Part shown: positions 14,136 through 26,298 of the stretch, in pieces
How positions within the stretch are numbered: the first letter of the stretch is position 1
How the letters are laid out: each line of letters opens with the position of its first letter
Source of the DNA: a bacterium
Lineage (GTDB): Bacteria; Bdellovibrionota; Bdellovibrionia; Bdellovibrionales; Bdellovibrionaceae
Direction: 5' to 3'
NCBI GenBank assembly: GCA_019752925.1
Contig: JAIELP010000008.1
Location: forward strand, 1-64,000
Length of the DNA stretch: 64,000 nt
Made by a program: the position numbers and the translations under genes
Notes under the pieces: model-generated
What the model was told of the DNA's origin: nothing
Seen by the model: the letters and a program-made list of their open reading frames with translations, nothing else
Databases searched by the model: none

Positions 14136-14693
14136 TTAGTAGCGGCGGCAGTCACGACGTGAAACAACGTCTTGACGATTGCTGCAACCATTTACGTAGC
14201 AATTAGTAGCATAATTGTATCTACAAGCATTCAATGCTTCGTCTTGCGCTCTCCATTGATCGTAACCGCGACCTAAGAAGCTTACTAAACGACCATAACG
14301 ATCGTAACCATCCACACGGCACTCATACATATTAGAGCTGCAAGTTTCGATACACTCACCATGGTGCTGTAAACATTCACCACAGCTGTAGTGTCCGCCG
14401 CCATGTTCTTCATAACCACGGTCATCAGCACGACAAGTGACATTGCCGTAACCAGGATTGCCTGGATAAGGTTGGCTTGGTGGATAAGAAGGATTACCCG
14501 GATATGGGTTACCTGGGTATGGATTGCCCGGATAAGGAGCTGGTTGACCTGGCGCATGACCCGGGCCACCTGGATATGGAGCCGGACGTGGTGGTTTTCC
14601 GCCACCAATGATAATTGGCAAGATATCGCCGAGATTAACGGCTTGAGCGCCGAGTGCGAATACAGTCAATAAAGACATAATAACTAGTTTCAT
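14136..14693 (-). CDS. Secreted PYPGN-repeat, Cys-rich protein
   Basis: A 185-residue exported protein (signal peptide about 1-18). Residues about 33-83 are a Pro/Gly-rich linker with three perfect YPGNP repeats (residues 54-68). Residues 85-185 hold ten Cys (87, 104, 107, 114, 118, 125, 157, 165, 170, 182), an even number that suggests a disulfide-locked fold. No family recognised. Likely a small extracellular or surface protein. Confidence 0.7.
   Translation of the reverse strand: MKLVIMSLLTVFALGAQAVNLGDILPIIIGGGKPPRPAPYPGGPGHAPGQPAPYPGNPYPGNPYPGNPSYPPSQPYPGNPGYGNVTCRADDRGYEEHGGGHYSCGECLQHHGECIETCSSNMYECRVDGYDRYGRLVSFLGRGYDQWRAQDEALNACRYNYATNCYVNGCSNRQDVVSRRDCRRY
14490..14534 (-). repeat. 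Three 15-bp tandem repeats coding YPGNP
   Basis: Three in-frame copies of a 15-bp unit inside the Pro/Gly linker of the Cys-rich secreted protein; the units differ by a few synonymous bases. Confidence 0.7.
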
Positions 14694-15578: not shown

Positions 15579-17318
15579 ATGAGTTTTCAAAAAATCTGCA
15601 CATTGGTTTCGGTACTTACTTTATTGTCTTCATTTCAATCTGTGGCCTTTGAATGTCCCGCAGAATTTTCAAAGCGAACGGGCCTTCCCGCCTGCCCAAC
15701 AAAAAACGGAAGTGTACTTGCCGACACCTATCCTGTAGGAGCACTCGTCGTTTCAAAACCACAAATTAATCGGGTTTCACCTCAGATGGGTGCACGAGTA
15801 GGATCAATCGATCCTTTACAACAAACTTACTCTTTTATTTTATCTGTTGCCACAACACAGGATAATATTCCTTTAATCGTATTACCATTGAGTCAGTCTG
15901 ACTTTGATTCACTCACAGCTAAATTAATGAGTTCAAGTGAAATTTCAGCAGAAAAAAAACAACAGTTACGAAAACGTTTAGCACACGCTAATGTATCGGG
16001 AGCTTACAACTGGCAGCAGGATTATTTTCAGGCAACAGTCAGCGGCAACGGAACACCACAATTACGCCCTAATACGGCCTACACCTCACATCCTGATCGC
16101 AGTCCTTCTGGCGAACACTTTTCTGCTATATCTAGTATCTTATCAAAATGTGGCGTACAAACAGGTGCACCACTCAATCCACCAGACTTAAAAGGTTTAT
16201 CCGATGGTATGTCTGGAGGAAATATCGAGTCTTTACCGAATGGAACATGCCTTATCGGCGATGATCACTTTGGAAAAATGAGCGACAGTAAAGCCTACGA
16301 TAAATTCGTTAAAAGTGTTTGCGGGAGCAACAAAAATATTTCAATACCTACCCATTGGTTAGGCGTAGGACACACCGATGAAATTTTAAAAGTACTTCCT
16401 AAAAAAGGTTTCAAACCTGAAAAGTGCGCCTTTAGCATTTCTATTGCGAGCCCAAAGCTAGCACTTGAGCTACTGGAGAAAGACCCTGAGGCACCATTTT
16501 TTAGTCCTGAGAAAATCCCAGATGAGCTCAAACAATCCGACGTTACCGACTTCAGAAGAGAAGTCAATCCATCCATGAATATGCTTTGTACAGCACTAGA
16601 TAACGCCAAAATAAAGCACGATGAAAGTGATCCTGATACACCTAGCGAAGAAGGAACAGGTAAAGGCCAATCTTATTTTAAGTTTTTACAAAAGCTTCTG
16701 CCGTCACTTATCCAACAAGCACAGGCCGCAGGCGCCGACGATAATGAATTTTTTGAAAATCAAAATGAAGATTTCTTTCAGAGCAAAAGTATTTCAGACG
16801 CAGAAAAAGCACATAAAGATAAACAAGAAAATGAGCTTTCAGGTAGTATTGCGGCACCTAAGAAAGAAAAAGCGGAAAAATTTGTAACCTGTAACGACGC
16901 CAGTAACAAACACATGGCTAAGCTATTCAAAACAGACCCTGCTCTGGTTCGAAGCAACAACTATGTACAAGCTCAAATGGATATTCTCGAACAGGATTTA
17001 AAGCGACAACTTGCAAAAATGTATCCGGGCTGCAATATTGAAATCAAAAAGGTACCTCAACTCTTTGATGGTGGTAATATTGGTCCCGATGGAAAATTAA
17101 ATGGGGTCAGCTCTATCAACCCTAACCCCACCAATGGCGTTTTAATAGGCGACCAATATTATATTCCCGACCAAGCCAATAAAACATTTCAAAAATATAT
17201 GAGAGATCACTTAAAAGAAAATGGCTTAAAAGCCAACTTTATTAACACTTATGACTTTGCACACTCGTTACAAGGTAACTTGCACTGTTCATCACAAACA
17301 ATCCCTCTTTGTAGATAG
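15579..17318 (+). CDS. Exported protein-arginine deiminase (PAD_C)-like enzyme
   Basis: A 579-residue protein with signal peptide 1-23. It matches the catalytic domain of vertebrate peptidylarginine deiminases motif by motif. QQDYFQA (Asp148) is equivalent to the QDEMEIG Asp350 region of PAD4, and GGNIESLP to its GNLEVSPP. WLGVGHTDE (His265, Asp267) is equivalent to WLSVGHVDE, VPQLFDGG to IPQLF, and FINTYDF plus GNLHCSS (Cys570) to FINDFF plus GEVHCGT. All four catalytic positions (D, H, D, C) are present. The Asp-His spacing (117) is close to PAD4; the His-Cys spacing is longer because of a low-complexity insert at about 340-435. The expected reaction is conversion of protein arginine to citrulline outside the cytoplasm. 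The Ig-like N-terminal domains of animal PADs are absent. Confidence 0.8.
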   Translation: MSFQKICTLVSVLTLLSSFQSVAFECPAEFSKRTGLPACPTKNGSVLADTYPVGALVVSKPQINRVSPQMGARVGSIDPLQQTYSFILSVATTQDNIPLIVLPLSQSDFDSLTAKLMSSSEISAEKKQQLRKRLAHANVSGAYNWQQDYFQATVSGNGTPQLRPNTAYTSHPDRSPSGEHFSAISSILSKCGVQTGAPLNPPDLKGLSDGMSGGNIESLPNGTCLIGDDHFGKMSDSKAYDKFVKSVCGSNKNISIPTHWLGVGHTDEILKVLPKKGFKPEKCAFSISIASPKLALELLEKDPEAPFFSPEKIPDELKQSDVTDFRREVNPSMNMLCTALDNAKIKHDESDPDTPSEEGTGKGQSYFKFLQKLLPSLIQQAQAAGADDNEFFENQNEDFFQSKSISDAEKAHKDKQENELSGSIAAPKKEKAEKFVTCNDASNKHMAKLFKTDPALVRSNNYVQAQMDILEQDLKRQLAKMYPGCNIEIKKVPQLFDGGNIGPDGKLNGVSSINPNPTNGVLIGDQYYIPDQANKTFQKYMRDHLKENGLKANFINTYDFAHSLQGNLHCSSQTIPLCR

Positions 17319-17327
17319 GAAAACACA

Positions 17328-17825
17328 ATGTTTTTAACAACACTATTAACATCACTTTTATTAGCTCAAGCCAACCCTAATAGCAATTTAACTTGCAAGG
17401 GAACTAGCGATGCTCACAACATGAGTTTTGAAATTGCCGTAACTAAAGTTAGTGGTAACCAAGTTAAGTTTACTAATACTAAAACTAAAAAAATCTGCTC
17501 ATGTACTTATCGTCTAGGTGTTTATAATGATCTTTCGCTGGGCGCTGCGCCGAAACAAATAACACGTCTACTATTTGAATCATGCAACCAAGAATGCCCC
17601 GAAGACATGAAAAAGAAAATCAACGCCAGCATTGACGTTGTTTATGAACAAATGGCTGCAAACTCATTTGCAAAACCCTTCAGTGGCAACAGAGCTATCA
17701 ACTGCTCTAATTTCAATATCGATACAAAAGGTTTACGTGGTTTAGAAAAAGAGAGAATTTCAAAATTAGATATGCCGACCGACGTAAAAGAAAAACTAAT
17801 CGACATCAAAGGTGTTAACAATTAG
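17328..17825 (+). CDS. Small secreted Cys-rich protein, probable partner of the deiminase-like enzyme
   Basis: A 165-residue protein with a short signal peptide (FLTTLLTSLLLAQA). Cys occur in LTCKG, KICSCTY, ESCNQECPED and INCSN, suggesting disulfides. No known domain. It starts 9 bp after the deiminase-like gene, with AGGAAAA upstream of the ATG, so the two form an operon. It could be a chaperone, inhibitor or second secreted factor; none of these is shown by the sequence. Confidence 0.6.
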   Translation: MFLTTLLTSLLLAQANPNSNLTCKGTSDAHNMSFEIAVTKVSGNQVKFTNTKTKKICSCTYRLGVYNDLSLGAAPKQITRLLFESCNQECPEDMKKKINASIDVVYEQMAANSFAKPFSGNRAINCSNFNIDTKGLRGLEKERISKLDMPTDVKEKLIDIKGVNN

Positions 17826-18585
17826 TCCTATTGTATCCAAAAAATCCAGGACTGCTTTTGTTATCACTTTAGCTTTCACATTTATTTTAGTTTTTTGCGC
17901 CTGGAATAAACTTCCAATAGTTGATCCTGTTCATTATTTTAATTTTGCCGATCAACGGCTTTTTCTCGGAATTCCGAATGGCTTTGATGTTCTGACCAAT
18001 ATACTTTTTGTATTGGTTGGATTTTTTGGACTGTGGTTTGTGCTCAATAATAAAAACTTGCACAAAAGTTTTTATTATTATGTCGGTATCTGGCTGAGTC
18101 TTTCAATTGTTTTTACCGGCATAGGTTCGGCGTATTTTCATTGGTCACCTGTTCCCGAAACCTTAACTTGGGACCGTTTACCAATGACATTGGCATTCAC
18201 AGGCCTGCGCTCCCTAGTCGGCGGCGACCGATTTGGTGCACGTATTGGCTGGGCTGTTTTTGCAATCTTGCTTCCGCTGGGACCATTAAGTGTTTTTGCT
18301 TACAAAATGAATTACTGGACGTTGAGACCTTACGCGGCCCTTCAATTAGCCACGGTTTTTTTTGTTTTAATCAGTGTAATTATTAAGCCCCAAGGGAAAA
18401 TACCCAATGCACTTTTTTACTGGGCATTAATACTGTATGTATTAGCTAAAATTTTTGAAACATATGATCACCAAGTGTTTGATTTTTTATCTCATTCATT
18501 AAGTGGTCACAGTCTTAAACATATGCTGGCAGCGCTGGCACTGTACAAAATTCTCAGCTTTTTTAAGAAAAAGATCGAAAATTAA
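17812..18585 (+). CDS. Ceramidase-like (CREST superfamily) membrane protein
   Basis: A 257-residue protein with seven hydrophobic segments. Signatures are GSAYFHWSP (Ser, His), WDRLPMTLAF (Asp), and the C-terminal SHSLSGHSLKH (two His) followed by a helix. These give the Ser/Asp/His metal-site pattern of alkaline ceramidase-type hydrolases. The frame opens at GTG 17812, overlapping the preceding gene by 14 bp, which suggests coupling. Bacterial members have unknown substrates, often thought to be amide-linked lipids. Confidence 0.75.
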   Translation: MLTISPIVSKKSRTAFVITLAFTFILVFCAWNKLPIVDPVHYFNFADQRLFLGIPNGFDVLTNILFVLVGFFGLWFVLNNKNLHKSFYYYVGIWLSLSIVFTGIGSAYFHWSPVPETLTWDRLPMTLAFTGLRSLVGGDRFGARIGWAVFAILLPLGPLSVFAYKMNYWTLRPYAALQLATVFFVLISVIIKPQGKIPNALFYWALILYVLAKIFETYDHQVFDFLSHSLSGHSLKHMLAALALYKILSFFKKKIEN

Positions 18586-25509: not shown

Positions 25510-26298
25510 ATGAGAACCAGATATTTTATTCTAACAATAGTTACACTAGCACTCGTAGCTTGCACACCTCACAACACTGATCTTCAAGCGCAGCTAGAGG
25601 CGCATCCAGAAATATTGACGAATGCCATCGAAAAGCACCCCGAACTCATAATGGATGCAATCCAGAAAGCTGCACGAGTTGCACAAGAACAATCGCGCAA
25701 AAAACAACAAGCAGACGAAGAAGCTGAAACCGAAAAGTATTTTAAAAACCCACTTCAGGCTGATCTTGAGACTAAACGGGTTTCGATTGGTCCTTTGGAT
25801 GCACCTATAACGATAATTGAGTATACAGATTTTCAATGTCCCTTTTGCGTGAAAAGTTACAGGACAATGAATGAAGTCAAAACAAAATACGGAGATAAGG
25901 TTCGCATCGTCATTAAGAATTTTCCACTTCCTTTTCACCCAATGGCCCTGCCTGCGGCATTACGATTTGAAGCACTTAGACAACAAGATAAAGAAAAAGC
26001 ACGCAAATTTTATCACGAGATTTTTAGTCATGCTGAGGAACTAGCGAATCAGGGCGAGAAATTTCTGGATGCGCAAGTTAAAAAAACAGGAGCCGACATG
26101 AATAAAATGAAGATTGCGATTTCGTCACCAGAAACCAAAGCCGCCATCGAGGCCGATACGCTAGAAGCACAAAAATTCGGATTCAGTGGCACGCCTGGAT
26201 TTTTAGTTGCTGGCGTCCCTGTGAAAGGCGCTTATCCACTTGAAACATTTCAAGCCATCATTGATCGAAAATTGGCGACCCTTGATGAGGCAAAGTGA
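25510..26298 (+). CDS. DsbA-family thiol oxidoreductase lipoprotein
   Basis: A 262-residue protein. Lipobox LALVACT (Cys near residue 18). A helical linker (about 25-75) precedes the thioredoxin-like domain, with active site YTDFQCPFC (CPFC) at about 115, the cis-Pro region FGFSGTPGFLVAG, and an inserted helical domain between. This is the DsbA/BdbD-type family, acting in the periplasm on disulfides. The GGAG six bases before the ATG fixes the start. Neighbouring exported proteins with Cys pairs could be substrates; this is inference. Confidence 0.85.
   Translation: MRTRYFILTIVTLALVACTPHNTDLQAQLEAHPEILTNAIEKHPELIMDAIQKAARVAQEQSRKKQQADEEAETEKYFKNPLQADLETKRVSIGPLDAPITIIEYTDFQCPFCVKSYRTMNEVKTKYGDKVRIVIKNFPLPFHPMALPAALRFEALRQQDKEKARKFYHEIFSHAEELANQGEKFLDAQVKKTGADMNKMKIAISSPETKAAIEADTLEAQKFGFSGTPGFLVAGVPVKGAYPLETFQAIIDRKLATLDEAK

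What the first reader, a model, noticed from the sequence alone, without database searches (positions are those of the whole stretch)
15579..17318. Exported bacterial peptidylarginine-deiminase-like enzyme with intact catalytic residues
The protein has a signal peptide and the vertebrate PAD catalytic-domain motifs in the right order: QQDYF (Asp148), GGNIESLP, WLGVGHTDE (His265, Asp267), VPQLFDGG, FINTYDF and GNLHCSS (Cys570). Asp-to-His spacing (117) is almost that of PAD4 (121). It lacks the animal Ig-like domains and has a low-complexity insert before the last third. It is unlike the Porphyromonas enzyme, which is closer to agmatine deiminase. In a predator-like bacterium, an exported arginine-citrulline enzyme could modify prey or host proteins.
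Basis: partly seen in the sequence, partly recalled or inferred. Interest (0 to 1): 0.8.

Follow-up and report, generated by a model that had tools for sequence, protein, structure and literature searches.

The report
Secreted deiminase with a conserved partner
Relatives of the predatory bacterium Bdellovibrio, including its standard laboratory strain HD100, carry an exported version of the animal enzyme that turns protein arginine into citrulline, nearly always encoded together with a small, undescribed exported protein that probably controls it.

Summary
Window 15579-17318 encodes a 579-aa exported protein matching Pfam PF03068 at 65 bits. Its AlphaFold model superposes on the catalytic domain of human PAD4 (residues 294-654; Z 33.8, 330 residues, 2.7 A). 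Trp145, Asp148, His265, Asp267 and Cys570 are kept in 48 or 49 of 49 Bdellovibrionota relatives. [quoted passage not shown]

The enzyme is one of a phylum-wide family: 76 of 369 Bdellovibrionota genomes have it at E < 1e-9, including B. bacteriovorus HD100. In 36 of 49 sampled loci it sits beside a small exported protein, usually downstream and often overlapping by 4 nt. That protein typically has four cysteines and a predicted beta-barrel. It has no Pfam, PDB or literature record that I found. In the window it is 17328-17825.

No other neighbour is conserved, and the pair recurs in unrelated surroundings, with the order swapped in two genomes. Bacterial PF03068 enzymes are already known, so the enzyme is a variant of a known kind. 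The partner is the new part. I favour a dedicated inhibitor or chaperone of a released citrullinating enzyme. That role is inferred, not shown, and nothing here was tested biochemically.

The parts
15579..17318 (+). exported PAD_C-only peptidylarginine deiminase, 579 aa
   Evidence: PF03068 65.4 bits; PAD4 by profile E 4.5e-26; VIA Z 33.8 to PAD4 294-654
15579..15647 (+). predicted signal peptide of the PAD (residues 1-23, likely cut after SVA)
   Evidence: sequence; hydrophobic N-terminus as in all partnered relatives; no dedicated signal-peptide program was available
16011..16022 (+). W145-Q-Q-D148: substrate-stacking Trp (PAD4 W347) and catalytic Asp (D350)
   Evidence: W 49/49, D 49/49 in Bdellovibrionota PADs
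16215..16229 (+). G213-G-N-I-E217, matches PAD4 407-411 (calcium site 1, Glu411)
   Evidence: N215 49/49, E217 43/49 Glu and 3/49 Asp
16371..16382 (+). H265-T-D267-E268: catalytic His471 and Asp473 of PAD4
   Evidence: 48/49 each for H and D, E268 49/49
16611..16880 (+). low-complexity, predicted disordered insert (about residues 345-434)
   Evidence: pLDDT below 50 in 355-365, 377-404 and 423-427; length varies between relatives
17286..17288 (+). catalytic nucleophile Cys570 (PAD4 Cys645)
   Evidence: 48/49 in Bdellovibrionota PADs
17328..17825 (+). PAD-linked small exported partner, 165 aa, 9 nt after the PAD stop; predicted beta-barrel plus two C-terminal helices; family cysteines C23, C59, C86, C126
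   Evidence: family found beside 36 of 49 PADs; a profile built without the window protein finds it as the only hit in the genome, E 2.5e-9; model pLDDT 88.7
17328..17372 (+). predicted signal peptide of the partner (residues 1-15, likely cut after AQA)
   Evidence: sequence; hydrophobic N-termini throughout the partner family

Best explanation
A two-gene operon. The first gene makes a PAD reduced to its catalytic domain. It is exported through Sec, probably stabilised by disulfides, and predicted to convert peptidyl-arginine to citrulline by the PAD mechanism (Cys570 nucleophile, His265 acid/base, Asp148 and Asp267 holding the guanidinium, Trp145 stacking). It acts outside the cytoplasm, on prey, host or environmental proteins or peptides. 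The second gene, translationally coupled in most relatives, makes a small exported beta-barrel that binds the enzyme and keeps it folded or inactive until release, protecting the producer's own envelope proteins. Shown by computation: family, fold, intact catalytic residues, linkage of the two genes, signal-like N-termini on both. Inferred: catalytic activity, secretion beyond the periplasm, physical binding, inhibition or chaperoning, and targets.
For: Enzyme: PF03068 above the cut-off; PDB profile hits are PADs only; fold match restricted to PAD4 294-654, Z 33.8; active-site columns kept in 48-49 of 49; purifying selection, dN/dS 0.04-0.11 among Bdellovibrio copies. Partner: same-strand neighbour of 36 of 49 Bdellovibrionota PADs, most often ATGA-overlapping by 4 nt; whole-genome search of 369 genomes gives 37 strong hits, 36 of them abutting a PAD; order swapped but linkage kept in G122 and G311; each PAD of the tandem pair in G089 has its own partner; no other neighbour family is shared by more than 3 genera; partner dN/dS 0.07-0.14. 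Control role: all 36 partnered PADs have short N-termini that look cleavable, whereas about 9 of 13 partnerless ones look membrane-tethered (4 lipoboxes, about 5 N-terminal anchors). HD100 is known to need a neighbouring self-protection protein against its own exported endopeptidases (Bd3460, PMC4686830).
Against: No biochemical evidence for either protein. No complex could be predicted (single-chain prediction only). The partner's nearest folds are weak, generic barrels (best Z 6.5). 13 Bdellovibrionota PADs do without a partner, including soluble-looking ones (L143, L146-L148). The tethering correlation rests mostly on one PAD clade and on N-termini judged by eye. One strong partner homologue (G078) has no PAD beside it. 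The partner of one PAD clade (L046, L049, L061, L174, L175) has only two of the cysteines and is not recovered when that clade is left out of the profile.
Confidence: 0.6

Rival explanations
1. The partner is a folding or secretion chaperone, or an activating subunit, rather than an inhibitor: it helps a disulfide-rich catalytic domain fold in the periplasm without PAD_M.
For: Tight translational coupling and strict linkage fit a chaperone equally well. The enzyme lacks the PAD_M domain that supports PAD_C in other PADs.
Against: Tethered and some soluble relatives fold without it. The predicted fold is a barrel, and no PAD chain appeared among the fold matches listed for the partner, although absence from that list is not proof.
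Confidence: 0.3
2. The partner is the enzyme's dedicated substrate, a protein that is citrullinated.
For: Adjacency; a bacterial PAD with a dedicated peptide substrate exists (citrulassin lasso peptides, PMC12971885), although there the PAD gene is not clustered with its substrate.
Against: No conserved arginine: the best column is 43% Arg and the window protein has Leu there.
Confidence: 0.08
3. The enzyme is a housekeeping deiminase of free arginine or small guanidines used for nutrition; the protein-modifying role is illusory.
For: The pentein fold also serves arginine and agmatine deiminases (established knowledge); Bdellovibrio feeds on prey protein; residue 374 of PAD4, which contacts substrate backbone in some PADs, is not conserved here (nor in human PAD3).
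Against: Sequence and profile matches are to PADs only; Trp347, which stacks on the peptidyl-arginine side chain, is invariant; the protein is exported and has a dedicated partner.
Confidence: 0.15
4. A catalytically dead relic or pseudo-enzyme.
For: One relative (L020/L164, G106) has lost His, Asp and Cys, and G042 carries a broken copy.
Against: The window protein keeps every catalytic residue; Bdellovibrio copies are under purifying selection.
Confidence: 0.05

Closest known systems
Vertebrate PAD1-4 (PADI; PAD_N + PAD_M + PAD_C)
   Same: PAD_C fold, all catalytic residues, Trp347, calcium-1 Gln349 and Glu411
   Different: no PAD_N or PAD_M, exported, rich in conserved cysteines, calcium site 2 Glu351 replaced by Tyr, about 20% identity, linked partner gene
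Actinobacterial/fungal two-domain PADs (Streptomyces; citrulassin PAD)
   Same: bacterial PF03068 enzymes; the citrulassin PAD is reported to citrullinate a lasso peptide (PMC12971885)
   Different: longer (about 600-700 aa) with an extra N-terminal domain; separate branch of the tree; no partner family found beside them
Cyanobacterial PADs (Cummings et al. 2021, PMC8826395)
   Same: bacterial PADs, shown to be active on eukaryotic proteins
   Different: three-domain architecture with PAD_M calcium sites, unlike the window enzyme; no cyanobacterial sequence was compared directly here
Porphyromonas PPAD
   Same: exported bacterial citrullinating enzyme
   Different: PPAD is related to agmatine deiminase; no sequence match to it here
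Bdellovibrio Bd3459/Bd0816 endopeptidases with self-protection protein Bd3460 (PMC4686830)
   Same: exported enzyme of a predator controlled by a dedicated protein encoded beside one of its targets; a model for how this pair might work
   Different: unrelated enzyme and an ankyrin-fold inhibitor; analogy only

Membership tests
PAD (PF03068) family | match to the PF03068 profile above its curated cut-off | tested here: met
   65.4 vs 25 bits
PAD (PF03068) family | PAD_C pentein fold | tested here: met
   predicted model vs PAD4 294-654, Z 33.8, 330 residues, rmsd 2.7; prediction only
PAD (PF03068) family | catalytic Asp350, His471, Asp473, Cys645 (PAD4 numbering) | tested here: met
   D148, H265, D267, C570 aligned with human PAD3
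PAD (PF03068) family | protein-arginine deiminase activity | not testable with these tools
   no assay
PAD (PF03068) family | calcium site 1 ligands (Gln349, Glu353, Glu411) | tested here: inconclusive
   Q147 and E217 kept; Glu353 is Gln151 in the window (Glu in 33/49, Gln in 13/49 relatives)
[quoted passage not shown]
   no Pfam match; the PAD_C match begins at about residue 41, just after the signal peptide
Animal-type three-domain PADI | calcium site 2 ligand Glu351 | tested here: not met
   Tyr149; Tyr, Phe or other residues in relatives
Actinobacterial/fungal two-domain PAD | divergent PAD_M before PAD_C | tested here: not met
   only about 18 residues lie between the signal peptide and the start of the PAD_C match; about 250 aa before the His motif vs about 400 in Streptomyces
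Porphyromonas PPAD type | sequence kinship to PPAD/agmatine deiminase | tested here: not met
   no such chain among PDB matches at E up to 1 (single sequence) or 0.01 (profile)
Known Pfam or PDB family for the partner | significant match of the partner to any Pfam-A model or PDB sequence | tested here: not met
Calycin/GID4-like barrels (partner) | fold similarity well above background | tested here: inconclusive
   best Z 6.5, Foldseek best E 0.037

The most novel reading that the evidence does not exclude
The partner is a naturally evolved, dedicated protein inhibitor (self-protection protein) of a peptidylarginine deiminase, so that predatory bacteria deploy protein citrullination as an exported weapon or processing tool and need immunity to it.
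Probability: 0.35. Interest if true: 0.8.

Novelty: new variant of a known kind. Interest (0 to 1): 0.62.

Why it matters
Protein citrullination outside animals is little explored, and almost nothing is known of why bacteria would do it. A phylum of predatory bacteria that carries PADs in about a fifth of sampled genomes, with an undescribed partner, gives a tractable system because the pair is in the genetically workable strain HD100. If the partner restrains the enzyme, it would be a natural protein regulator of PADs, a class for which small-molecule control is sought in human disease. The enzyme would also be a calcium-simplified, single-domain PAD useful for dissecting how PAD_C works without PAD_M.

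Tried and rejected
IMG/VR scan with the family profile: no relative. Plasmid collection by tblastn: no match, so no sign of spread by known plasmids or phages. The first genome-contig query failed because the alignment was too diverse; a narrower one worked. NCBIfam: no model. The partner as arginine substrate: rejected for lack of any conserved Arg. The partner as a PAD_M replacement: no PAD or Ig-like domain stood out among its fold matches, which is weak evidence only. The downstream gene 17812-18585 (ceramidase/CREST-like) as a third operon member: not conserved beside other PADs, one weak relative in the genus. Promoter and terminator scans: no more promoters than in shuffles. Leave-one-out detection of the window partner by local HMM depended on the alignment mode; I rely. 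The partner of L035 was missed by the profile and recognised only by its position, signal peptide and four cysteines. Literature searches for Bdellovibrio with deiminase, peptidylarginine deiminase or citrulline gave nothing relevant, within open-licence PMC only.

Full report
OBSERVATION. The ORF is at the stated coordinates and every quoted motif and residue number is right. Pfam gives PF03068 at 65.4 bits. A single-sequence PDB search reaches PAD1 at E 3.6e-4, and a profile of 22 relatives reaches PAD4 at E 4.5e-26 with PADs only in the list. AlphaFold2 on 39 natural relatives gives pLDDT 83 and pTM 0.82. The best structural matches are PAD4, PAD3 and PAD1, aligned only over the catalytic domain (PAD4 294-654, Z 33.8, 330 residues, rmsd 2.7).

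ACTIVE SITE. I aligned 49 Bdellovibrionota PADs with human PAD3, whose catalytic-domain sequence was taken from the printed alignment. PAD4-numbered Trp347 and Asp350 are 49/49, Gln349 48/49, Asn409 49/49, His471, Asp473 and Cys645 48/49, and Glu474 49/49 (numbers in that output after the first gap are PAD3-based and differ by one from PAD4). The one exception, L164/G106, has lost His, Asp and Cys together and is a pseudo-enzyme. Calcium site 1 is largely kept: Gln349 and Glu411 present, Glu353 is Glu in 33/49 and Gln in 13/49 including the window. Glu351 of calcium site 2 is not kept, and the PAD_M sites are absent. Calcium dependence is therefore open. I could not measure distances in the model.

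DISTRIBUTION. With the family profile, 83 of 369 phylum genomes match at E <= 1e-3 and 76 at E < 1e-9. In the window's own genus (14 genomes) no other genome has a convincing copy; one weak hit has E 1e-3. In the same family, genome G004 has a single contig of 3,782,950 bp, which is the published length of B. bacteriovorus HD100 (PMC8289219), so HD100 carries the PAD at 1847296-1848975 (-) and the partner at 1846802-1847299 (-) of that assembly. In the window, the genes on the left flank (M28, M48, two small exported proteins) keep their order in G045, whose 2,657,893 bp I recall as B. exovorus JSS, and in part in G052 and G055, while the PAD, its partner and the genes to their right are missing there. 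The pair therefore lies at a break in synteny, gained here or lost elsewhere.

THE PARTNER. The first sign was that the 165-aa protein downstream of the PAD has one weak relative in the class, and that one lies beside another genome's PAD. Listing neighbours then showed a small exported protein, typically with four cysteines, directly beside most PADs, usually with the ATG overlapping the PAD stop by 4 nt. A profile of 21 of these found further members, all abutting a PAD. These were searched only within PAD loci, so position there is evidence but not independent of the sampling. Over 369 whole genomes a 35-member profile gave 37 strong hits (E < 1e-16) in 36 genomes; 36 abut a PAD, and one (G078, a 3.2 kb contig) does not. 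Most of those 37 are in or close to the training set, so the count mainly shows that the family does not occur elsewhere in these genomes. The fairest test for the window is a profile made without it and without its closest relative: the single hit in the 2.74 Mb genome is the protein beside the PAD, E 2.5e-9. Leaving whole groups out still recovers most (E 4e-18 to 1e-6) but not the two-cysteine partners of the L046/L049/L061/L174/L175 clade, whose homology is therefore not established. Counting L035, recognised only by eye, 36 of 49 Bdellovibrionota PADs have a partner. No other neighbour family is shared by more than 3 genera. Both genes are under purifying selection in Bdellovibrio.

PARTNER FOLD. 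AlphaFold2 gives pLDDT 88.7: a barrel-like all-beta domain with two C-terminal helices. No Pfam or PDB sequence match. Structural matches are weak and generic (a designed barrel and GID4, Z about 6), so its fold class is suggestive only.

WHAT IT PROBABLY DOES. The enzyme most likely citrullinates proteins or peptides outside the cytoplasm. The partner most likely binds it. Between inhibitor and chaperone the evidence is thin. In favour of control of a released enzyme: every partnered PAD has a short N-terminus that looks cleavable, while about 9 of 13 partnerless ones look tethered (4 lipoboxes and about 5 N-terminal anchors, judged by a crude hydrophobicity script and by eye). Seven of those tethered ones are one clade, so this is few independent events. 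Bdellovibrio needs such protection against other exported enzymes (Bd3460; PMC4686830). A dedicated-substrate role is unlikely because no arginine is conserved.

KNOWN OR NEW. PF03068 PADs in bacteria are known: about 0.8% of bacterial species in the 2021 survey, 69 of them proteobacterial, a group that then included Bdellovibrio (PMC8826395; which species were meant was not checked). A cyanobacterial PAD is active on eukaryotic proteins, and a Streptomyces PAD is reported to modify lasso peptides (PMC12971885). That survey described other bacterial PADs as having a divergent PAD_M; the window enzyme and its relatives have no room for one. An Armatimonadota relative (L051, 355 aa) also looks short, so the catalytic-domain-only form may not be unique to this phylum. 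I found no description of the partner family or of PAD in Bdellovibrio in open-licence PMC papers, which is not the whole literature.

Noticed in passing
L164:6751-8274:- (= L020; genome G106): A PAD relative with His to Met, Asp to Asn and His-Cys to Gln-Ser at the active site: a natural pseudo-enzyme that keeps the rest of the fold.
   Followed up: partly
L152 and L030 (genome G089): Two PAD-partner pairs in tandem, each PAD with its own partner; the two PADs are quite divergent.
   Followed up: partly
L184 (genome G042, C85): A PAD gene broken into pieces by stop codons, apparently decaying.
   Followed up: no
L177:1083-1589:+ (genome G078): The only strong partner homologue without a PAD beside it, on a 3.2 kb contig of an incomplete assembly.
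   Followed up: partly
L055, L079, L062, L050: Much longer open frames ending in a PAD domain (about 890-1450 aa) in Holophagales, Sulfidibacter, Planctomycetota and Paractinoplanes; possible multi-domain PADs.
   Followed up: no
window 17812-18585: Ceramidase/CREST-like membrane protein gene (GTG start) overlapping the end of the partner gene; only one weak relative in the genus.
   Followed up: partly
window 14136-14693: Small exported protein with a Pro-Gly-Asn-Tyr repeat (YPGNP) and 10 cysteines, conserved beside the M48 peptidase in genus members.
   Followed up: no
window 25510-26298: Exported DsbA-like thiol-disulfide protein (CPFC motif), of possible relevance to disulfides in the PAD and its partner.
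   Followed up: no
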